From the IMG/VR virus record IMGVR_UViG_3300042402_007915, positions 1-64,000 of that record: a stretch of 64,000 bases of DNA; one strand, written 5' to 3'. A program made the position numbers and the translations under genes. Origin of the DNA: a virus. The notes beneath the pieces are model-generated. The model worked only from the letters and a program-made list of their open reading frames with translations, had not been told where the DNA came from and ran no database searches. Of this stretch, positions 2,769-23,067 are shown piece after piece. The number at the start of each line of letters is the position of its first letter. Position 1 is the stretch's first letter.

Positions 2769-3323
2769 CTACACGATGGTGTTCAGGATGATGGACACCC
2801 TGGTTCCCCTTCTGTGCCAGGCGTAGTGGCTTGGCCCCTGCTCTTCTTTTCCCTCGAAGAGGGTGGTGCAGGGTATTGAGATGGGTACTCGGCGTTGGTA
2901 TGGGATTTCTTCCAGGTGAACGCGGAGTTTTCCTTCGGTGAAGTCACCGAGAGGAAGAATGACGGTTTGCCCCTTGTTGGATTTGGGGTCTTTGTGCCGT
3001 CCAACTTCTGCGCCAGGTCTGTATACCTGGACGAAGAGGCAGTTGAACCTTTGTTCGTGACCCAAGAGCGCTTCAATCCATTCTTTCATACGAATGCCCG
3101 CTACACGAATCGCGGGTGGGGACTTGCGGCCCCTACCATATCCTTCGCCGAAAGCGGTGAACCGGAAGTCGCCGAGGAAGCTGGGAGAAGTGCCGAGCTT
3201 TAGGCTCTTTATTTCCTCCAGGACCGCAGTCTCTTCCTCTTCGGTGAGGATTGGCTCTGACCCGACGAAGGTCAGAGCTTTGTGGTGCCGCGAGAGACGC
3301 GTCATGTAATCGAAGTCCACCAT
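2769..3323 (-). CDS. AlkB-like Fe(II)/2-oxoglutarate-dependent dioxygenase
   Basis: 184 aa, the usual length of a minimal AlkB domain. Visible motifs: the fold's FNxLFVQVYRPG strand, the iron-binding HKD (HxD) at about residue 118, a distal His in HYAWH, and the RGTRVSIILNT segment carrying the Arg pair that binds 2-oxoglutarate. AlkB proteins oxidatively remove alkyl groups from nucleobases; relatives hydroxylate bases or proteins. In this phage it could repair alkylated or otherwise marked DNA or RNA, or help modify phage DNA. The fold is clear, the substrate is not. It lies one gene upstream of the 3327-3837 pair's end with no overlap and is followed by a strong hairpin. Confidence 0.88.
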   Translation of the reverse strand: MVDFDYMTRLSRHHKALTFVGSEPILTEEEETAVLEEIKSLKLGTSPSFLGDFRFTAFGEGYGRGRKSPPAIRVAGIRMKEWIEALLGHEQRFNCLFVQVYRPGAEVGRHKDPKSNKGQTVILPLGDFTEGKLRVHLEEIPYQRRVPISIPCTTLFEGKEEQGPSHYAWHRRGTRVSIILNTIV

Positions 3324-5873: not shown

Positions 5874-5963
5874 GGTGTAACCCGTGGGGGGCGCGAAGGC
5901 CCCGGTATTTTTTTTGCGCAATGAGGGACAACCCCTCACGGAACCAAAGCGCCGAAGGCGCAG

Positions 5964-5990: not shown

Positions 5991-6434
5991 TTATCGAAGG
6001 AGGTAGACCGTGAGAGGTGAGTCTTGGAAGATTTTGATAATCTCTTGTTTGATTTCCCCGTAGTCTAATCCACCCAATCCGCAACCCATTGGTGGGATAG
6101 AGATTGAAGAGGCGAGCTTAAGTTGAAACGCCTTGTCACTTCGCTCTCTTAAGGTTTGAAGGGCTTTTACGACCCATTCTTTTTGGGACGGGTACTTCCA
6201 GTGCCGCTTTGTAGCGGCGTTGGCGATGTATCTTCCACAAACCGCATAGATGACTACGTCGCCAGGCTTATACTTCCCAGCCTTACAGTCTCGGCGATAG
6301 AGCTGGAACATATCTGGATAGTGTTCTTTGTAGAACTTAGCCAGTCCTGCGCCCATGACGCCAACACAGTTGACTGTGTTGACTTCGATGTCAGCACCTG
6401 TTTGGGTGATGTTGGCTACCTCGATGAATGGCAT
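5991..6434 (-). CDS. Macrodomain protein, DarG/TARG1-type ADP-ribosyl hydrolase candidate
   Basis: 147 aa, about one macrodomain. Start at MPFIEV because GGAGGTG lies eight bases upstream. Visible family features: VNTVNCVGVMGAGLA (the ADP-ribose-binding loop after the first strands), YPDMFQLYRRDC, a KPGDVVIY strand, WKYPSQKEWV, and the IPPMGCGLGGLDY loop that binds the distal ribose and phosphate. This loop set matches the macrodomains that remove ADP-ribose from DNA thymidine (DarG, the antitoxin of DarT) and from proteins (TARG1). In a phage the expected job is to erase ADP-ribose that DarT-type defence places on phage DNA. No DarT-like toxin is visible nearby, so this is unlikely to be a toxin-antitoxin pair. 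Confidence 0.88.
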   Translation of the reverse strand: MPFIEVANITQTGADIEVNTVNCVGVMGAGLAKFYKEHYPDMFQLYRRDCKAGKYKPGDVVIYAVCGRYIANAATKRHWKYPSQKEWVVKALQTLRERSDKAFQLKLASSISIPPMGCGLGGLDYGEIKQEIIKIFQDSPLTVYLLR

Positions 6435-6499
6435 GCACACCTCCGCGGAAAACAAAGGGCGACGCCCTGTTGGCGTCGCCCGTACTGCTGAGGTTGAGC

Positions 6500-6727
6500 T
6501 TACTTCCGCATTCCCCAGCCAGAACCCGCTCCCTGTGCCGAGACGAGGAACCCCTTGGGGCGGCGAACGACGTTGGCCTGAATGGCTTTGCGTTGTTCGT
6601 CCTGTTGCGCGGCGTTCTGCGCCGCACAAACTTTCTGGAGCCTCCAGGAATCGTCTTTGCCGCCGTATTGCTCCTGGATAAGAGCGGCCCGTTCGTCGGG
6701 CGTGATCGGTTGGCGTTTGCGTGCCAT
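6500..6727 (-). CDS. Small basic hypothetical protein
   Basis: 75 aa, strongly basic at both ends and Gln/Ala-rich in the middle (VCAAQNAAQQDEQRKA). Its ATG overlaps the stop of the small membrane gene upstream (TAATG), so it is translated from the same message. Composition would suit RNA or DNA binding; no family recognised. Confidence 0.7.
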   Translation of the reverse strand: MARKRQPITPDERAALIQEQYGGKDDSWRLQKVCAAQNAAQQDEQRKAIQANVVRRPKGFLVSAQGAGSGWGMRK

Positions 6728-6903
6728 TAGAGCACCTCACACAAGTCTGCTGGCGAGTAGTCCAGCAGGATAAGGACAAGGAAGAGTGCTGCTACTCCCA
6801 GCACAATGAGGTTGGTGAAGGTGGGCTCTTTGATGACAGCCACGAGGCTGTACCAGAAGAACGCTGCCCACGCGAACAGGCCGGTAAGGAAGATGATGAG
6901 CAT
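6727..6903 (-). CDS. 58-aa membrane protein
   Basis: Begins MLIIFLTGLFAWAAFFWY and contains two hydrophobic helices (about residues 1-22 and 33-50) with an acidic C-terminus. GGAAGAG lies eight bases before the ATG, and the stop overlaps the next start. Short enough to be missed by length cut-offs. Likely an inner-membrane peptide of unknown role. Confidence 0.72.
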   Translation of the reverse strand: MLIIFLTGLFAWAAFFWYSLVAVIKEPTFTNLIVLGVAALFLVLILLDYSPADLCEVL

Positions 6904-6919
6904 TGGCTGCTCTTCCTGT

Positions 6920-7429
6920 TCAAGGACAAACCTTGACGCTGGTGGTCTGGATGAGGGAAGTGAAGTTGACCTTTGGACAGGCCAGCTTGTACCACACCTC
7001 GTTGTTGATAGAGACGCGCATGGTCTCGCCGTCTACGGCGGCCATCAGCTTCTGGGCCTTGATGCCACTTTCAAGGAACATCTGGCGGCCATGCTCTGCT
7101 TGGTTGCAGAGCTTCTTTTCTTTGACGTTCTTGGTTTTGTGGTTTTCGGCGATCCTTTTGATCTCGAAGCATACGATGGTGCCGTTGACGGAAAGAATCG
7201 CGTCAACGTTTTGTTTTTCGGTGTTGTCCAGGTGCAGGGTCGCACCGACTCCCAACACCTTGATGGGCGAGAGGAACATCTCTTGGATTGCAAGCAATCC
7301 CCGTGCGATCAGTCCGGCTTCTTTGTCGGACGAGATGGCGGCGAGGAGCGCAGCCTCTTTGATGGACAGCCCCGAAACGGTAACGATCTGCTTGGGACTC
7401 TGCTGACGACCACCAATAACGATTTGCAT
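6920..7429 (-). CDS. Possible PD-(D/E)xK-like nuclease
   Basis: 169 aa. The segment NVDAILSVNGTIVCFEIKR (about residues 74-92) has the spacing of a PD-(D/E)xK core: Asp, a turn, then E-x-K on the next strand, followed by a Lys-rich helix. A conserved-looking Gln/Glu helix (NQAEHGRQMF) follows, as in several restriction-like folds. The call rests on one motif and could be wrong. The start has GAGGT six bases upstream. First gene of a small operon with the two genes that follow. Confidence 0.55.
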   Translation of the reverse strand: MQIVIGGRQQSPKQIVTVSGLSIKEAALLAAISSDKEAGLIARGLLAIQEMFLSPIKVLGVGATLHLDNTEKQNVDAILSVNGTIVCFEIKRIAENHKTKNVKEKKLCNQAEHGRQMFLESGIKAQKLMAAVDGETMRVSINNEVWYKLACPKVNFTSLIQTTSVKVCP

Positions 7430-7448
7430 AGTTATACCTCGAGGAATA

Positions 7449-7467
7449 GTAGAACTGCATGTTCTAC
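7449..7467 (-). promoter_or_regulatory. Leader inverted repeat upstream of 6920-7429
   Basis: GTAGAAC and GTTCTAC flank TGCAT, a perfect 7-bp inverted repeat just upstream of the ribosome binding site. It may be an RNA leader hairpin or an operator. Confidence 0.4.
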
Positions 7468-7489
7468 CGAATAGAAGCCGCGAAGCGGC

Positions 7490-7519
7490 GGGTAAACGAA
7501 AGGCCCCCTTTCGGGGGCC
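7490..7519 (-). terminator. Terminator after the 7525-7746 gene
   Basis: GGCCCCCGAAAGGGGGCC on the - strand followed by TTTCGTTT, directly after the stop codon. Confidence 0.8.
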
Positions 7520-7524
7520 ATGTG

Positions 7525-7746
7525 CTACCAGCTGAGCGTGTCGTACAGTTCGTCCGCGGCCTTTTTGCCCCAGCGACGGTACGCTGCGTCAATCAGCAGG
7601 AAGTTGTAGTCGTTCTTTTTGGTGGCCAGGCAGAACGAGACGATACGCTTGCTCGCTTGGAATCCAAGCCAGTCTTTGCGTAGCTGGCGGACCCACCACC
7701 GCCAGCAGTGGCCGGCGTACTTTTTCTTTTCTTTCCTACGGGCCAT
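7525..7746 (-). CDS. Small basic Trp-rich protein
   Basis: 73 aa from MARRKEKKK; AAGGTG precedes this ATG, whereas the longer frame to 7836 overlaps the neighbouring gene. Very basic N-terminus, then WRWWVRQLRKDW, and a mixed C-terminal half. Likely nucleic-acid or membrane-surface binding, but no family is recognised. Confidence 0.65.
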   Translation of the reverse strand: MARRKEKKKYAGHCWRWWVRQLRKDWLGFQASKRIVSFCLATKKNDYNFLLIDAAYRRWGKKAADELYDTLSW

Positions 7747-7762
7747 GATACACCTTGTCTTG

Positions 7763-8029
7763 TTAGAAGGGAACGTCTTCGAGGCAGTTGGCTGCCATTG
7801 CTGCTTCAAGATCTGCTTGCCACTGACGCTCTGCATCAGTGATCATGAGCACCTTGGGCTTGCCGTCTTGGGTGCCCCAGCGGGCAGTCTTGGCCCAGAG
7901 GCACGCGAGTTCCAGGTCGGAGACTTCGGGGATGGTGGCGCCGCATTCGGGGCACTGCTCCCCTGCCGCGCCTTGTTCAAGGTAACCGCATTGGTGGCAG
8001 TACGGCATGTTGGGTCGTTGCAGTTCCAT
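7763..8029 (-). CDS. Zinc-ribbon protein with SSB-like tail
   Basis: 88 aa. Residues about 11-30 hold a rubredoxin-like zinc ribbon, C-x2-C then C-x2-C (CHQCG and CPECG). After a helical middle it ends in CLEDVPF, closely resembling the acidic D-x-P-F tip of bacterial SSB. Its ATG overlaps the upstream stop (TAATG). Inference: a small adaptor that binds nucleic acid or protein through the ribbon and recruits, or competes for, SSB-binding host enzymes. Confidence 0.78.
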   Translation of the reverse strand: MELQRPNMPYCHQCGYLEQGAAGEQCPECGATIPEVSDLELACLWAKTARWGTQDGKPKVLMITDAERQWQADLEAAMAANCLEDVPF

Positions 8030-8232
8030 TATTCACCTCCGAGCAGGAGTTTGATTGCCAGCTTGATACGCTGGCTGAGGGTTTTGGGAGCGGCTTTCAC
8101 TTGCTGCCGCTTGAACTTGCTCATCGCAATGAGCCTTGCGGCTGTTTTGAGTAGAGCCGGTGACTGCTTTGCTTCGATCGGGTGGCGCGATCGAAGCACT
8201 TCCTCCCATAGCCGGGTTTCGATTTTGTACAT
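8029..8232 (-). CDS. Small basic hypothetical protein
   Basis: 67 aa. Start at MYKIETR, chosen because GGAGGTCGC directly precedes it. Lys/Arg-rich with an amphipathic helix (about residues 38-62). It opens an operon with the zinc-ribbon gene and has a full leader: a UUCG-loop hairpin built from CCCCC and GGGGG, then GGTTC, then the ribosome binding site. Confidence 0.68.
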   Translation of the reverse strand: MYKIETRLWEEVLRSRHPIEAKQSPALLKTAARLIAMSKFKRQQVKAAPKTLSQRIKLAIKLLLGGE

Positions 8233-8338
8233 GCGACCTCCTGGCGAACCCACCCCCCCGAAGGGGGTGGGCTATTCCTCAGCCGCGCTTGTCTACGAGA
8301 TAGCGTGTCGTGGGGATCAGTTTGCCTTCTTTATTTTT

Positions 8339-8355
8339 ACCTTGAGAGTAGGCTA
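8339..8355 (-). promoter_or_regulatory. CTCAAGG element upstream of 8029-8232
   Basis: Reads TACTCTCAAGGT on the - strand, matching the 3' half of the repeated ~28 bp element found from 11 to 27 kb; the GGCGCC half is missing. It lies about 110 bases before the start codon, next to the stop of the upstream gene. Confidence 0.45.
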
Positions 8356-9033
8356 AGGGTAGTTGATGAGGAATCGGTTCAGTTCCTCATAGGACATACG
8401 GTCAATACGCTGCTGTGCCTTAATATGCTGTTCCATACGCATCTGAGGCTTGATTGCAGGAGGCGCATAGTCTGCTGCGTTGGGCAGCAGCATCAGCTCC
8501 ATTGTTGGCTTTTTGGACTTGTCTGTCGATGGCTTTGTGTTTTGGGGGTTACCGTAACTTCCTCGTTGTGGGATGTAGTCCCACCCGCAGTGGATTCGCA
8601 CTCCCATGGCGTTTACTTTATATTGGGGAGCAGCAATGTTGATTCCGACATTTGCGCCACTTTGTTCAGTGACTTTCTCTCCGCGTGCTCCAATAGCTTG
8701 AAGATATTCGCGCCCCAATATGGCTTCGACTTTTTCTTCAGGCATCTTTTGGGTTTGGACCTTTCGGATGTCCCAGAGCTGGATGATATTTTGCCAGGCG
8801 AAGTAGCTTGTAAAGTGGCTTGGGCGTTGGCCATCCAGACAGATCAGCATGCGTTCTTTGTCGAATACGGGCCTAAGCAGACACCAGAATGGGATAGCTG
8901 ACATTTGAGAGTCTGTTACGACTCCCAGGACTTCTGAGTTTCCGTATCCTTTCCATTCTTTTTCGGTGTCTTGAATCTCTTGTAGTGAGATCGGGCTGAT
9001 AAGCCCGTTGTCGATTGCTGCTTGGAAGCTCAT
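8353..9033 (-). CDS. Hypothetical protein, 226 aa
   Basis: Unrecognised. Start at MSFQAA with GAGGAGAG upstream; it overlaps the NADAR-like gene by four bases (ATGA type), implying coupled translation. Contains a Trp/Phe-rich N-terminal half and a Lys/Ser/Pro-rich linker (about residues 165-185), then a basic helical end. Because it is coupled to the NADAR-like gene it may act in the same process. Confidence 0.72.
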   Translation of the reverse strand: MSFQAAIDNGLISPISLQEIQDTEKEWKGYGNSEVLGVVTDSQMSAIPFWCLLRPVFDKERMLICLDGQRPSHFTSYFAWQNIIQLWDIRKVQTQKMPEEKVEAILGREYLQAIGARGEKVTEQSGANVGINIAAPQYKVNAMGVRIHCGWDYIPQRGSYGNPQNTKPSTDKSKKPTMELMLLPNAADYAPPAIKPQMRMEQHIKAQQRIDRMSYEELNRFLINYP

Positions 9034-9521
9034 CTGCTCTCCTCTTGGATCCACTTTTGGAACTTGGGGTTGCTTCTAATACTTTCCCAATGCTCTACGA
9101 TCCATTCGTAGCCAGCATGGACTGGTTTACCGCCGTATTGGTAATAGTGCGTGAGTGGGAGCGTAGATTCGGCGAATACTTTTGCCATTGCTGGGTGCTG
9201 GAATAGCTTCAGCTTCATGGCGTGTTTGAATAGTTCCAAGCAGGGTTCGTCAGTGATATGGCGAACACGGTCACTTGGGTTGGCCTTGAAGTAGTTCTTA
9301 GCATCCCAAGGGGTGCATCTTACGAGCTTTGGCTTTGCTTCGTCGGATGCTTGGAGCCAGAACCAATAGTTCTCCATACTGCGGAACTTTACTCCGTCGA
9401 TTTCGACGGGAATCTCTGCGAGGTTGGAGAGCCATCTACCCAGGGTGGTTTGGCCCTTGGTGTAGATGTTGATGTGTGTGGTACCGTCTTCTAACGGCAC
9501 CCACTTATATGGTTCTGGCAT
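9030..9521 (-). CDS. NADAR-like (DUF1768) domain protein
   Basis: 163 aa, the usual size of one NADAR domain. Family features seen in order: the opening LGRWLSNLAEIPVEIDG strand pair, the F-R-S-x-E motif (KFRSMENYWF), a short TPWDAKNYFK segment, a W/F-free helix carrying MKLKLFQHPAMAKVF, and the closing YGGKPVHAGYEWIVEHW with the final R of the fold (SIR). NADAR proteins hydrolyse ADP-ribose conjugates; some remove ADP-ribose from guanine bases modified by DarT-family enzymes. This gene would complement the macrodomain at 5991. It sits in an overlapping run from 10102 to 8353. Confidence 0.78.
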   Translation of the reverse strand: MPEPYKWVPLEDGTTHINIYTKGQTTLGRWLSNLAEIPVEIDGVKFRSMENYWFWLQASDEAKPKLVRCTPWDAKNYFKANPSDRVRHITDEPCLELFKHAMKLKLFQHPAMAKVFAESTLPLTHYYQYGGKPVHAGYEWIVEHWESIRSNPKFQKWIQEESR

Positions 9522-9805
9522 TACTCGAATCGGAAGGTGACTGGAAGGATCGTCATCACGCTTGATTTGCTATTTTGAAACTCCCATTTAACGTTGCAGT
9601 GGTATACTTCTTTCAGGATTTTTCGTATTTCTTCTTCATGGGCTGAGTTGAACTTAAACGATACTGCGGTTACTTGTGAGATATTCCAGTCTGGATAGGC
9701 TTTCCCTCGAGCCAGCATTTGCTTGACCACATTTTCAGCATTTGCCTGGATAGTGATGGGGCCGCCACTCAGCGTGCCATTTCCATTCTGGTTTGCGATT
9801 GCCAT
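9521..9805 (-). CDS. Hypothetical protein, tandem paralog A
   Basis: 94 aa. Shares QANAENVV (about residues 19-26) and YHCNVKW-like C-terminal blocks with the gene at 9815-10102, so the pair is a local duplication. Strong ribosome binding site AAGGAGGCGGA. One base overlap with the NADAR-like start. Small alpha/beta fold likely; function unknown. Confidence 0.75.
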   Translation of the reverse strand: MAIANQNGNGTLSGGPITIQANAENVVKQMLARGKAYPDWNISQVTAVSFKFNSAHEEEIRKILKEVYHCNVKWEFQNSKSSVMTILPVTFRFE

Positions 9806-9814
9806 TCCGCCTCC

Positions 9815-10102
9815 TTACAGGAACCTGAAGAGTTTTGGGTGGACTGAGATTGTCGGGTATACTGGATCGTCAGCATACCTTTTCCCTCTACAGTGGTATT
9901 TCGCTTCGAGCATAGTCATGATATCTCCCTCTCGGGAGACATGGCAGGTAAAGGTGTTAACACCAGTCTTTTTGATTTTCCACTCTTGGTAGTGAAGGCC
10001 CAGAGCTACAATAGCATCTACTACGTTTTCGGCATTGGCTTGGGCGAAGATAGTGCCGCCCGTGATTCTGTGTGTGACGTCTTCGTTTTGGGCGGTTGCC
10101 AT
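9815..10102 (-). CDS. Hypothetical protein, tandem paralog B
   Basis: 95 aa. Same QANAENVV block followed by a Y-x-E/D-W-x-I segment and a YHC motif as paralog A; both end in a Phe-Arg-Phe-type tail. GAGGTAAGC precedes the ATG. No family recognised. Gene duplication immediately upstream of the NADAR-like gene may reflect a dosage or specificity effect. Confidence 0.75.
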   Translation of the reverse strand: MATAQNEDVTHRITGGTIFAQANAENVVDAIVALGLHYQEWKIKKTGVNTFTCHVSREGDIMTMLEAKYHCRGKRYADDPVYPTISVHPKLFRFL

Positions 10103-13210: not shown

Positions 13211-13363
13211 AATGGGATAATGGGAAGGAGTGGGATGGAACTGCAATGGGATAATACCTGGAAAGGAACTGGGATAAGACTGCAATGGGATAAGGGGAAG
13301 GAACTGGGATAAACTGTAATGGGATAACTGCAATGGGATAAACTGCAATGGGATAATACCTGG
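13211..13363. repeat. Iteron-like tandem repeats, candidate replication origin
   Basis: Eight copies of GGGATAA start at 13214, 13248, 13271, 13287, 13306, 13321, 13335 and 13350; the last four are about 15 bases apart. Longer exact repeats include CTGCAATGGGATAATACCTG at 13241 and 13343, and AAGGAACTGGGATAA at 13263 and 13298. The complement TTATCCC resembles the start of a DnaA box. AT-rich sequence follows (13370-13510). Arrays of short direct repeats beside AT-rich DNA are typical of phage and plasmid origins. No gene is seen here. Confidence 0.55.
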
Positions 13364-18830: not shown

Positions 18831-21800
18831 TCAATCCGGGACGTACTCAGTCCATTCGCCGAAACTTGGCTGGTCGTCTTCCGACTCCTCAGCACTAGGA
18901 CCATCCAAATAGGTGTCCTTCAAGTCTTCGGCGAAGCCCATGATGCTGATCCAGGAGGAGTAAATCCCCTGTTCAACCAAGCGGGCAAAGAACTCAGTAT
19001 ACATCTCATCCACCGCTTCCGGTTTCAGGAATGCGCGTTTACGGTTACAGGGCACCATTCCGGCGATACTGTTCCGATACGCATCCTTAGCCCGGAGCTC
19101 CCATCTACGTTGGGTCATTGCAAAATGGAGTGACTTGTCATCACGCAATTTCTTCTGCAATGCGGCAGTCAGCGAAACCAACTTGCCAGTAGACGGGAAA
19201 GCAGGAGCATTCGCGCTGCGGATACGAGCGACAGCAGCCTTTTTCAAGACAGCCATGCACTCTTCGCACTCGTGAAGAGGCTTATGCTTGGTCCGGAAAT
19301 GTTCCACCTGGATCCCAGGCACCTCCCCTTCTTGCGTCGGGTAGGCGTAAGCCGTGTCGAAGGCGAGCTCTGCAACCAAGGCACAGAGTTTAATCTCGTT
19401 CTTCCCACGGAGAGGAGTCAGCTTATGCTTCGAGACAAAGTAGCTAACATATCCGTCAGCATCCTCCGCCGTCAGCAGGCAAGACTCCTTGGTCTTGGTG
19501 GAAATGATATCCAGAAAGGTTGACCCCTCAAAGCACAGGGCGTCGAGAGCCCTGCTGTCTGCTTTGGTGAGCCAGTTCAAGCCGCCGTCTTTCTTGACGT
19601 TCAACTCGGACTGGGGGGTGCCCAAGGGTTTGTCCCCAACCTTCTGGAGCTCGACATAAATACCCGCCTCATTATTCCCACGCCGGTAGGCGATACACGA
19701 GAACAAGCTTTCGCGTGCCCAAGTGATCCAGGGAGCCAGGGCGTCTTTAGCCTGCTCTTCCCGCATTTCAGCCGAGAACTGCTCGTAAGCAAAGTCCATC
19801 GCCAATTTGCGAGCACTACTGGACTCTTGCGAGTCCGAGTTGTGGCCTTCCCCTTCACGGGTTTCCCCGTTCGAGTCGGACAAAGACATAGCCTCATAGA
19901 TGTTCTGATCGAGCCGAGCCAGCGGGTGGAGCGGGACTTTCGTCTTCTCCATCCACTTACCCATGGCATCGAAATCAATACACCGGCTATTCTGCAGGCG
20001 CCAGACAACGCGTTGATCGCGCCAAGCCGCCAAATGAGAACCCTCAGCAGGGTTTTTCCAAGAGTCCCCCTCCCCTTGGATAGTCCGGAAGATCTTATCT
20101 ACCACCCAGAAGAGCGGCAGCCGCTTCTCACCATAGTTCACCATCGGAGGGGTCGCCCCGCTCTGTTCGGCTTTCTGGTGGAGAGCACGGAGGATCCGGT
20201 AGGGAAGCCCTGCGCAAGGCTTAGCCGGGCGGTTAAACCCAAGCTCCTCACGCCGCTTTTCCCAAATTTGACACGCTTTGGTGTAAGCGATGTCAGAGAG
20301 ATTCGCTTGGTACCTCAACGACCCGAAGGCGTTGGGATCAATCCGCTTCCGGAGACGCTCACCCATTGCTGAGTTATTGCGCCGCCATCCGAGGACACCA
20401 AAGAACGCACTCATACCAACCGCCTCCTTAAACTTATCCTGGAAGTAAATCAGGACTTCGTCGGAGGAAATCAGCCGGCATTTTTGCGACAAGGTGAGCG
20501 AATCGAAGGTCTCGGCCGCTTCTCCAGGTATCAGCTTGAGGACAGCCTTATCCTGGTCGAGGAAGTTCTCAGATGAGATACCATTCCCCTTGAGCGAGCC
20601 AAACTTGAACGCCTTCCCGTTGGAGTCAAGGTCGTAGTGGCAGTAGATGTGACCATCTGCCATTTTCTTCCAGGCCCGAAGGTTAGAAACCTTCGGAGCG
20701 TTCGTCCAGCGCACGATCCGCTTGGCGCGGTCAATGCTTTCCTGAATGAACGTACCCCATGCGGGAATCCATCCTTTAGCTGCGTCAACGATATATTTCA
20801 CTCGTTCCGCGAGACCAAGGAACCCATCACCATCCTGCCAAGTAGCAGGGTTGGATTTCTGCTCAGACCAATAGAGGCTTTTAACCCTCCTAAAGGCAGC
20901 ATGCCACTTGCCCATTCCCTCAGGATCTTCCTTGAGGTACTCGATTTTATCGAGCCGAGCCCAGTACCGCAGATCAACGAGGCGCGCCTGATTAATGGCG
21001 TACGCACGAGCCTGCAGAATAGTGGCTTGCCCCACAGGACCCATAGGATCCTTGAGCAGGTAACCGTAAAACGCCTCTTGATCCTCGAAAGGAATCGACA
21101 TCTTTTCGCCAGCCGGTTCGATCCGGAAGGTAGGCTGCCAGATCCGACGGTTTGCAAGGAGTTTCACATCCTCGTCCGTGGTCCAAGCAGCAATGTCGCC
21201 GTCGTCGTCACCCTGGAGATCGGTTACATCATCCGGGTTCATGAAGACAGCAAAAGGAACGACAATCCGGTCGACTACCTCACCGTCAGCGTTTGCCACA
21301 CTCAGCGTCATGTGGGGGAGGGGATCCACCACCTTAAGCGTCATGAGCGACTGAGGGAGAATAGCAGGAAAGCGCCAAAGAACCGTTTCATCGCCTACAG
21401 CGGGAAGCTTCTGGTTAACACCGCCGATCACGCACTCACCCTTGTTCAGGGAGTTGTCCATGACCATGACGACCTGGTTCCCTTCGAAACCGGTGCCATT
21501 GGCAATGTTATACAGTCGCCGCTTGAGCTTATCCTCTGCCATCTGACGAAGGACAGGGATGTCAAGCAAGCTGTAGTCGAGTCCAAGCTCTTTAGCAACC
21601 CGAACCATGGTGATCTGGTTGTTGAGGGTGGTGTTGCCGCCACTATCCTCAGAGATCAAACCATCGACACCATCCTTGAGCAGCTTATCCATGGCCTTTT
21701 GGACCAAGCGTTCGACTGCCGCGGTAGTGTCGTTATCGACCTTGACGAGCTGCAATAGCTCAAAGCATGACTTGATCGTGCTTGCGCGTGACCAAGTCTT

Positions 21801-23000
21801 GAGAATGCCCAAATGAGCCTTAACAACCATTTCAGCGTCCACCTCATCCTGCGCTTTCGCCCAGTCTTTGGCAGTACCCTTAATCTGGTTCCAAGCAACC
21901 CGGACAGTGGGGTTACCGGCTGCATCGACACAAGTTTCATCGGGAACCAACAAGCCTTTAAGGAACATGTTCCTGTGCTCGGGGTTACCGGTGACTTCTT
22001 CGAGGCAGAGGCCACGAATTTGGATAACGGGAGCGATCATCCCACCCTGGTATGCGACCCCGCGTTCTTGGATGAACGCTTGAAGGAATTCGCAGTTCGG
22101 GTGGTACTTACCACTACCGTCAACCAAAGCCCGGATCTTCTTACCCTCGCGGTCGTTCACCCAAATATTACTAAGGGTTACTGGTACCTCGGGGAAGAAA
22201 CCACCGGGCAAAAGCGGGGACTTGAATGAACCAACGTAGGAACCCACGTTGATCGCATCACCGAAGACACGCTCCAGCAACGCAAAGGCAAAATGTTTGC
22301 CACCATTCTTACCCAAAGTGTTGAAGGCGGTCCGCCCTTCGAGCACACCCATATCATTCTGTCGGAAGACAGGATAGAGCAGCTCTCCAGGGGGCCTCCC
22401 CAGATTCTCCGTTGATTCGACCGGCAGGAAGAAATCCCCGTCGATATCAAGGAGCCCGTTGTGCCGCAAGACACAATCGAGCAAGCCTGGGGCCCGAAGG
22501 ACCTCCAAAGTTTGCACGCAAGGGAGGATTTTCTCCCGAGCAATGCTAGTCATTGCCGTAAAGTGGTAGGGGCTCTCAAAGCGATCCCCTTCCCGGCAAT
22601 GAGCATAAGCCTCAGCAGCATCCTCCAAGATGCCGTTCGACTTGAAGAAGCTGAGTGCAGTCTTGGACTGACCAGCAGCTGCAGCCATCCGGCCGGAGGA
22701 CTTGCGTTCCACCCGACCATAGGTCTGCATAATCTTGGTGCGGCGATAGAGCGCCGAGTTAGCCATCATGGCCGCGTACGTCGAGCGCCGCGCATCCAAT
22801 TTGGCCTTCAGCTTCTTAGCCGCAACCAGCAAAATCTGATCGACCTCGTCGGCCGTATCAGCGGGGATTGGAGTCCCCTTAATCAGCGCACGGAGAATCC
22901 CCGGCGCAAAACGACGGAGCACCTTTTCCAGGCGCCCGTTCGCTGCCAGAAGGGGCGGCACCACGACGGTGCGCCTCTCCTGGACTTCTGTTGCTTCCAT
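18831..23000 (-). CDS. Putative single-chain two-barrel RNA polymerase (DxDGD)
   Basis: 1389 aa. Start at MEATEV, four bases after AAAGGAG; a longer frame to 23054 lacks one. Residues 597-602 read GDDDGD: three aspartates D598, D600 and D602 in the DxDGD arrangement that binds catalytic magnesium in the beta-prime subunit of cellular RNA polymerase, QDE-1-type polymerases, YonO of phage SPbeta and crAss-like phage polymerases. About 70 residues upstream lie NKGECVIGG and LWRFPAILPQS, which resemble the strands leading to the catalytic loop in the same double-psi barrel. The length fits a single-chain enzyme carrying both barrels. Expected role: transcribing phage genes from phage-specific promoters. 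I have not found the first-barrel lysines with certainty. Not virion-associated by position (early strand). Alternative: another protein using an acidic loop by chance. Confidence 0.75.
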   Translation of the reverse strand: MEATEVQERRTVVVPPLLAANGRLEKVLRRFAPGILRALIKGTPIPADTADEVDQILLVAAKKLKAKLDARRSTYAAMMANSALYRRTKIMQTYGRVERKSSGRMAAAAGQSKTALSFFKSNGILEDAAEAYAHCREGDRFESPYHFTAMTSIAREKILPCVQTLEVLRAPGLLDCVLRHNGLLDIDGDFFLPVESTENLGRPPGELLYPVFRQNDMGVLEGRTAFNTLGKNGGKHFAFALLERVFGDAINVGSYVGSFKSPLLPGGFFPEVPVTLSNIWVNDREGKKIRALVDGSGKYHPNCEFLQAFIQERGVAYQGGMIAPVIQIRGLCLEEVTGNPEHRNMFLKGLLVPDETCVDAAGNPTVRVAWNQIKGTAKDWAKAQDEVDAEMVVKAHLGILKTWSRASTIKSCFELLQLVKVDNDTTAAVERLVQKAMDKLLKDGVDGLISEDSGGNTTLNNQITMVRVAKELGLDYSLLDIPVLRQMAEDKLKRRLYNIANGTGFEGNQVVMVMDNSLNKGECVIGGVNQKLPAVGDETVLWRFPAILPQSLMTLKVVDPLPHMTLSVANADGEVVDRIVVPFAVFMNPDDVTDLQGDDDGDIAAWTTDEDVKLLANRRIWQPTFRIEPAGEKMSIPFEDQEAFYGYLLKDPMGPVGQATILQARAYAINQARLVDLRYWARLDKIEYLKEDPEGMGKWHAAFRRVKSLYWSEQKSNPATWQDGDGFLGLAERVKYIVDAAKGWIPAWGTFIQESIDRAKRIVRWTNAPKVSNLRAWKKMADGHIYCHYDLDSNGKAFKFGSLKGNGISSENFLDQDKAVLKLIPGEAAETFDSLTLSQKCRLISSDEVLIYFQDKFKEAVGMSAFFGVLGWRRNNSAMGERLRKRIDPNAFGSLRYQANLSDIAYTKACQIWEKRREELGFNRPAKPCAGLPYRILRALHQKAEQSGATPPMVNYGEKRLPLFWVVDKIFRTIQGEGDSWKNPAEGSHLAAWRDQRVVWRLQNSRCIDFDAMGKWMEKTKVPLHPLARLDQNIYEAMSLSDSNGETREGEGHNSDSQESSSARKLAMDFAYEQFSAEMREEQAKDALAPWITWARESLFSCIAYRRGNNEAGIYVELQKVGDKPLGTPQSELNVKKDGGLNWLTKADSRALDALCFEGSTFLDIISTKTKESCLLTAEDADGYVSYFVSKHKLTPLRGKNEIKLCALVAELAFDTAYAYPTQEGEVPGIQVEHFRTKHKPLHECEECMAVLKKAAVARIRSANAPAFPSTGKLVSLTAALQKKLRDDKSLHFAMTQRRWELRAKDAYRNSIAGMVPCNRKRAFLKPEAVDEMYTEFFARLVEQGIYSSWISIMGFAEDLKDTYLDGPSAEESEDDQPSFGEWTEYVPD

Positions 23001-23067
23001 GTGACTCCTTTGTCTGGGAAGCGAAGGGTTGGGGAATATCGACGTTATTGTCATACCCCGCGTGACT

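What the first reader, a model, noticed from the sequence alone, without database searches (positions are those of the whole stretch)
5991..9521. Macrodomain and NADAR-like enzyme in one early region
A DarG/TARG1-type macrodomain (5991-6434) and a NADAR-like protein (9030-9521) belong to two unrelated families that erase ADP-ribose from nucleobases, thymine-type and guanine-type respectively by published family knowledge. No DarT-like toxin accompanies them. Together they would give the phage broad protection from DNA ADP-ribosylation defence.
Basis: partly seen in the sequence, partly recalled or inferred. Interest (0 to 1): 0.8.

Follow-up and report, generated by a model that had tools for sequence, protein, structure and literature searches.

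The report
Two phage ADP-ribose erasers
This phage carries two unrelated genes of kinds that strip ADP-ribose tags from DNA, probably to resist bacterial toxins that tag phage DNA; both genes are real, but many phages, including the classic phage T4, carry the same pairing, so the find is ordinary apart from an unusual active site in one of them.

Summary
Both genes are real. Window 5991-6434(-) encodes a standalone 147-aa DarG-type macrodomain. It scores 140 bits against antitoxin_DarG, its AlphaFold model (pLDDT 95.7) finds DarG macrodomains as the top PDB matches, and the DarG catalytic lysine (K80) is kept as K76. Window 9030-9521(-) folds as a NADAR; the only meaningful PDB matches are YbiA and two solved NADARs. 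It belongs to a divergent phage clade with histidine (H125) in place of the acidic residue. The lysine essential in DarT1-linked NADAR (C7 K95) is Q57 here, so guanine activity is uncertain. No DarT was found in the 147-kb record. Among 42 viral records with DarG-type macros, full-length DarG comes with DarT in 13/14 and short standalone ones in 0/28, so this macro belongs to a large orphan class, consistent with counter-defence. The pairing is not new: T4 carries Tk.4 (macro) and gp30.3 (NADAR), matching the same PHROGs; Erwinia phage Ea35-70 has them adjacent; 24/50 NADAR-bearing viral contigs carry a macro; the co-occurrence is published. The genes lie in separate, terminator-divided cistrons, and the closest sister contig shows no macro. 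"Broad protection" is plausible for thymine, unproven for guanine. Early expression was not shown.

The parts
5991..6434 (-). Standalone DarG-type macrodomain protein, 147 aa (ATG 6434; catalytic-type K76, N22, GCGLGG loop)
   Evidence: families and PDB; K76 and N22 in 80/80 sequences; model pLDDT 95.7; DarG top PDB matches
9030..9521 (-). Divergent phage-type NADAR (YbiA-fold) protein, 163 aa; E50, K75, H125 kept; Q57 at the essential-lysine position
9521..9805 (-). Small ORF immediately upstream of NADAR; its stop overlaps the NADAR start (TAATG)
   Evidence: 34% identical to the next ORF upstream
9815..10102 (-). Paralogue of 9521-9805, upstream in the same cluster
8353..9033 (-). 226-aa protein of unknown family; start overlaps the NADAR stop (ATGA), so probably co-translated
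   Evidence: no family match
7502..7519 (-). Terminator-like hairpin between the NADAR and macro genes
6457..6481 (-). Strong terminator-like hairpin (10-bp stem) just upstream of the macro gene
5949..5961 (-). Terminator-like hairpin downstream of the macro gene

Best explanation
Two independent phage counter-defence genes of known kinds. The macrodomain is an orphan DarG-type hydrolase: host DarT2-like toxins put ADP-ribose on thymine of single-stranded phage DNA, and the phage enzyme binds the ADP-ribose in the macrodomain cleft and cleaves it off with K76 as the DarG-like catalytic lysine, letting replication go on. The NADAR-fold protein is a gp30.3-like (His-type) ADP-ribosyl hydrolase that most likely removes ADP-ribose from guanine in DNA or RNA, but with an altered active site. 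Shown here: both folds, family placement, residue conservation, absence of a detectable DarT, the orphan class, and commonness of the pairing. Inferred: catalysis, substrates, benefit to the phage.
For: Macro: (DarG specifically, ahead of TARG1); K76 in 80/80 sequences; short orphan macros never with DarT (0/28) versus full-length DarG 13/14. ALC1-like standalone macrodomains such as SCO6735 remove T-ADPr and rescue cells from DarT (PMC9411070). NADAR: fold; E50, K75, H125 conserved in 52-54 of 54; T4 gp30.3 falls in the same PHROG and has G-ADPr hydrolase activity in vitro (PMC11125620). No DarT, ARG or Nudix match in the record.
Against: Lysine K95 (C7) / K50 (P. nicotianae), essential for efficient G-ADPr hydrolysis, is Q57 here and is K in only 8 of 54 family members. 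T4 gp30.3 does not rescue from DarT1 in cells. TARG1/SCO6735-type macros also act on protein-ADPr, so the macro's substrate is not fixed by sequence. No expression data and no known host.
Confidence: 0.6

Rival explanations
1. The two proteins mainly process small ADP-ribose derivatives (cADPR isomers, ADPr-1''-P and others) used as immune signals or RNA-repair by-products, not tagged DNA.
For: Iyer et al. argue this for phage Macro/NADAR in general (PMC9503650). The sister contig has a SLOG/DprA-like gene directly after its NADAR, Ea35-70 has NADAR fused to a SLOG domain, and SLOG genes lie near NADAR in further contigs. The NADAR lacks the phosphate-binding lysine.
Against: The macro is DarG-type, a class with T-ADPr hydrolysis as its unifying activity. 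No homologue of the sister's SLOG protein was found in this phage (a weak test). NADARs tested in the papers read act on guanosine-ADPr.
Confidence: 0.22
2. The NADAR-like protein is not a hydrolase any more but an ADP-ribose-binding sensor, or acts on another glycosidic substrate; only the macro is a counter-defence enzyme.
For: Lysine position variable across the clade; no Pfam NADAR match for this member.
Against: E50, H125, Y126, G13, H16, N18 invariant in 54/54, the pattern of a conserved active site; purifying selection.
Confidence: 0.13
3. One half of a phage-borne toxin-antitoxin system whose toxin was missed.
For: DarG and NADAR are the antitoxins of DarTG2 and DarTG1 (PMC11543638).
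Against: No PF14487 match in the record; orphan short macros never accompany DarT; the DarG C-terminal DarT-binding part is absent (147 aa; NCBIfam match covers positions 7-143 of 338).
Confidence: 0.05

Closest known systems
DarG macrodomain (DarTG2 antitoxin; PDB 5m3e, 5m31, 5m3i)
   Same: Fold (TM 0.83-0.89), 32-35% identity over the domain, catalytic lysine and asparagine kept
   Different: No C-terminal DarT-binding domain and no DarT found
SCO6735 / TARG1 (standalone ALC1-like macrodomains)
   Same: Standalone domain of the same class; SCO6735 rescues from DarT (PMC9411070)
   Different: Sequence and fold scores are closer to DarG than to either; keeps the DarG lysine that SCO6735 lacks
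T4 Tk.4 and gp30.3 (macro and NADAR in one phage)
   Same: Same two PHROGs, 335 and 652; T4 has both genes, far apart from each other
   Different: Tk.4 has no lysine at the K76 position; gp30.3 keeps the NADAR lysine lost here
Erwinia phage Ea35-70 macro and NADAR-SLOG (Ea357_151, Ea357_152)
   Same: Related macro (29% identical) and NADAR genes, adjacent to each other
   Different: There they are neighbours and NADAR is fused to SLOG; here they are 2.6 kb apart with several genes and terminators between
AdfN, the orphan NADAR anti-DarTG1 factor of T4-like phages (from memory, Johannesman et al. 2025; paper not in the library)
   Same: Orphan phage NADAR without DarT
   Different: Relation to this clade not tested; no sequence compared

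Membership tests
DarG-type (ALC1-like) macrodomain hydrolase | Macro fold closest to DarG/TARG1 | tested here: met
   Foldseek top 3 are DarG macrodomains; NCBIfam DarG 1.1e-40
DarG-type (ALC1-like) macrodomain hydrolase | Catalytic lysine (T. aquaticus DarG K80) and conserved asparagine | tested here: met
   K76 aligned with the DarG lysine in TKKHW; K76 and N22 in 80/80 sequences
DarG antitoxin (full protein) | C-terminal DarT-binding domain and adjacent DarT | tested here: not met
   147 aa, match covers only the N-terminal part; no DarT. It may work like the DarG macrodomain but is not a DarG antitoxin
DarG-type (ALC1-like) macrodomain hydrolase | Thymidine-ADPr hydrolysis | not testable with these tools
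   needs an enzyme assay
NADAR superfamily | YbiA/NADAR fold | tested here: met
   Model pLDDT 94.2; only meaningful PDB matches 2b3w, 8bau, 8bat; profile match 8bau 1.6e-4
NADAR superfamily | Catalytic-centre glutamate (C7 E88) and E/D/H in the last strand | tested here: met
   E50 and H125 invariant in 54/54; phage NADARs are known to carry His
NADAR superfamily, DarT1-antitoxin type | Lysine K95 (C7) | tested here: not met
   Q57 at the aligned place; K in 8/54
NADAR superfamily, DarT1-antitoxin type | Lysine K115 (C7), needed for DarT1 rescue | tested here: met
   K75 aligned; K in 52/54
NADAR superfamily | Guanosine-ADPr hydrolysis | not testable with these tools
   needs an enzyme assay

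The most novel reading that the evidence does not exclude
The lysine-lacking, His-type phage NADAR clade (phrog_652/11222 outside T4), sometimes next to or fused with SLOG, is a distinct enzyme with a substrate other than guanine-ADPr DNA, such as a soluble ADP-ribose immune signal, while the orphan DarG-type macro handles DNA.
Probability: 0.25. Interest if true: 0.55.

Novelty: new member of a known kind. Interest (0 to 1): 0.3.

Why it matters
If both enzymes work as inferred, the phage would blunt both known kinds of DNA ADP-ribosylation defence (DarTG1 and DarTG2). More generally, the sampled viral DarG-type macros split cleanly: full-length with DarT, short without. That suggests a simple rule for telling phage counter-defence macrodomains from toxin-antitoxin antitoxins, and the variable lysine in this NADAR clade gives a concrete residue to test for substrate change.

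Tried and rejected
Pfam NADAR on the window protein and record gave nothing; only a family profile and the fold settled it. Single-protein scan of viral contigs for the macro found no close relative. Nucleotide search of phage genomes found no match. Idea that the two genes form one operon: rejected, terminator-like hairpins and several genes lie between. Idea that they are a conserved pair: rejected, the closest sister (70% NADAR identity, shared neighbours) shows no macro in its 54-kb contig. Physical linkage of macro and NADAR elsewhere: about 6 of 24 co-carrying contigs within 10 kb against 2.5 expected by random placement, some contigs related to each other, so weak. From the macro side co-occurrence is low: only 1 of the 28 short-macro records has a NADAR of this clade. 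Papers naming AdfN were not in the library. Bacterial genomes hold few relatives of this NADAR clade (9 loci, all in metagenome bins), so no bacterial operon could point to a substrate.

Full report
What is there. The window is the first 64 kb of a 147,225-base viral record of a tailed phage: T4-type terminase, DnaG/DnaB-like primase-helicase, PolIII-alpha-like polymerase and a C5 cytosine methylase. The region has no nucleotide match among 50,697 phage records, and the terminase is at best 31% identical to a known one. Both reported ORFs are present on the - strand.

The macrodomain (5991-6434). The ATG at 6434 follows a good ribosome site (GGAGGTGTGC). Family searches name DarG specifically: NCBIfam antitoxin_DarG 1.1e-40 over residues 8-143, covering positions 7-143 of a 338-position model, and PADLOC DarG 1.2e-40. 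phmmer against the PDB gives M. tuberculosis and T. aquaticus DarG macrodomains first, then a Thermosipho DarTG entry, then TARG1. An AlphaFold model with 33 sequences (pLDDT 95.7) finds DarG as the first PDB matches (TM 0.83-0.89), then the Thermosipho entry and TARG1, and lower down SCO6735 (5e3b). The DarG lysine in the motif TK(K)HW aligns with K76, which with N22 is present in 80 of 80 sequences.

Orphan class. 293 viral loci encode relatives. The best 80 split by ORF length into about 146-225 aa and 306-416 aa. In 42 records, DarT (PF14487) accompanies 13 of 14 long ones and 0 of 28 short ones (Fisher p 5e-10, not corrected for relatedness). The window protein is of the short kind, and no DarT was found in its record. 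A standalone ALC1-like macrodomain, SCO6735, rescues cells from DarT and removes thymidine-ADPr (PMC9411070), so the missing DarG C-terminus does not speak against function.

The NADAR-like protein (9030-9521). Pfam NADAR does not match it, but it belongs to phrog_652, the PHROG that also holds T4 gp30.3. A profile of the window protein and 53 viral relatives finds NADAR 8bau at 1.6e-4 and YbiA 2b3w at 1e-3. The AlphaFold model (pLDDT 94.2) matches YbiA and the two solved NADARs in the PDB and nothing else of note. It is thus a NADAR-fold protein of the phage clade.

Its active site. In published work (PMC11543638) E88, K95 and D171 of E. coli C7 NADAR carry guanine-ADPr hydrolysis, K115 is needed for rescue, and phage NADARs carry His for D171. 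Here E50 (for E88), H125 (for D171) and K75 (for K115) are kept and near-invariant in the clade. The K95 place, seven residues after the glutamate in the profile alignment, is Q57, and across the clade it is mostly L, S, K, G, A or T, lysine in 8 of 54. T4 gp30.3 keeps the lysine, cleaves guanosine-ADPr in vitro, yet does not rescue from DarT1 (PMC11125620). Guanine activity of the window protein is therefore likely but unproven. The residue correspondence rests on sequence-profile alignment; the model was not superposed residue by residue.

Arrangement. NADAR sits in a tight cluster: its start overlaps the stop of a small ORF (9521-9805), and its stop overlaps the start of a 226-aa unknown (8353-9033). 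Terminator-like hairpins at 7519-7502 and 6481-6457 separate it from the macro. The sister contig L007 (NADAR 70% identical) shares several flanking genes and the AlkB-like gene, has a SLOG/DprA-like gene after NADAR, and shows no macro match. This suggests that the two enzymes were gained or lost independently. Early expression is only guessed.

What is known. Iyer et al. [quoted passage not shown] T4 carries Tk.4 and gp30.3. Erwinia phage Ea35-70 has macro and NADAR side by side. Of 50 viral contigs with this NADAR clade 24 have a macro. In tblastn, 516 and 697 phage records hold relatives of the NADAR and the macro respectively.

Verdict. The thing is a new member of a known kind; the parts worth following are the orphan-macro class and the lysine-lacking NADAR clade.

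Noticed in passing
window 2769-3323 (-): 184-aa protein with an AlkB-like 2OG-Fe(II) oxygenase look (HKD ... H ... RVSIILN), 43% identical over 143 residues in the sister contig L007; no Pfam or PDB match, so unproven.
   Followed up: partly
window 6920-7429 (-): 169-aa protein with a PD-(D/E)XK-nuclease look (VDAI...FEIK); only a weak match to phage Holliday junction resolvases (E 0.065).
   Followed up: no
window 13211-13357: Tandem repeat array (period 29-34, 3-4 copies; inner 15-base unit).
   Followed up: no
L007:10495-11043: SLOG/DprA-like gene directly after the sister phage's NADAR gene (PF02481 4.4e-6); the window phage has an unrelated 226-aa gene in that place.
   Followed up: partly
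window 9521-10102 (-): Two small tandem paralogues (34% identical) upstream of NADAR, no PADLOC match.
   Followed up: partly
window 18831-23054 (-): 1407-aa ORF with no Pfam or PHROG match.
   Followed up: no
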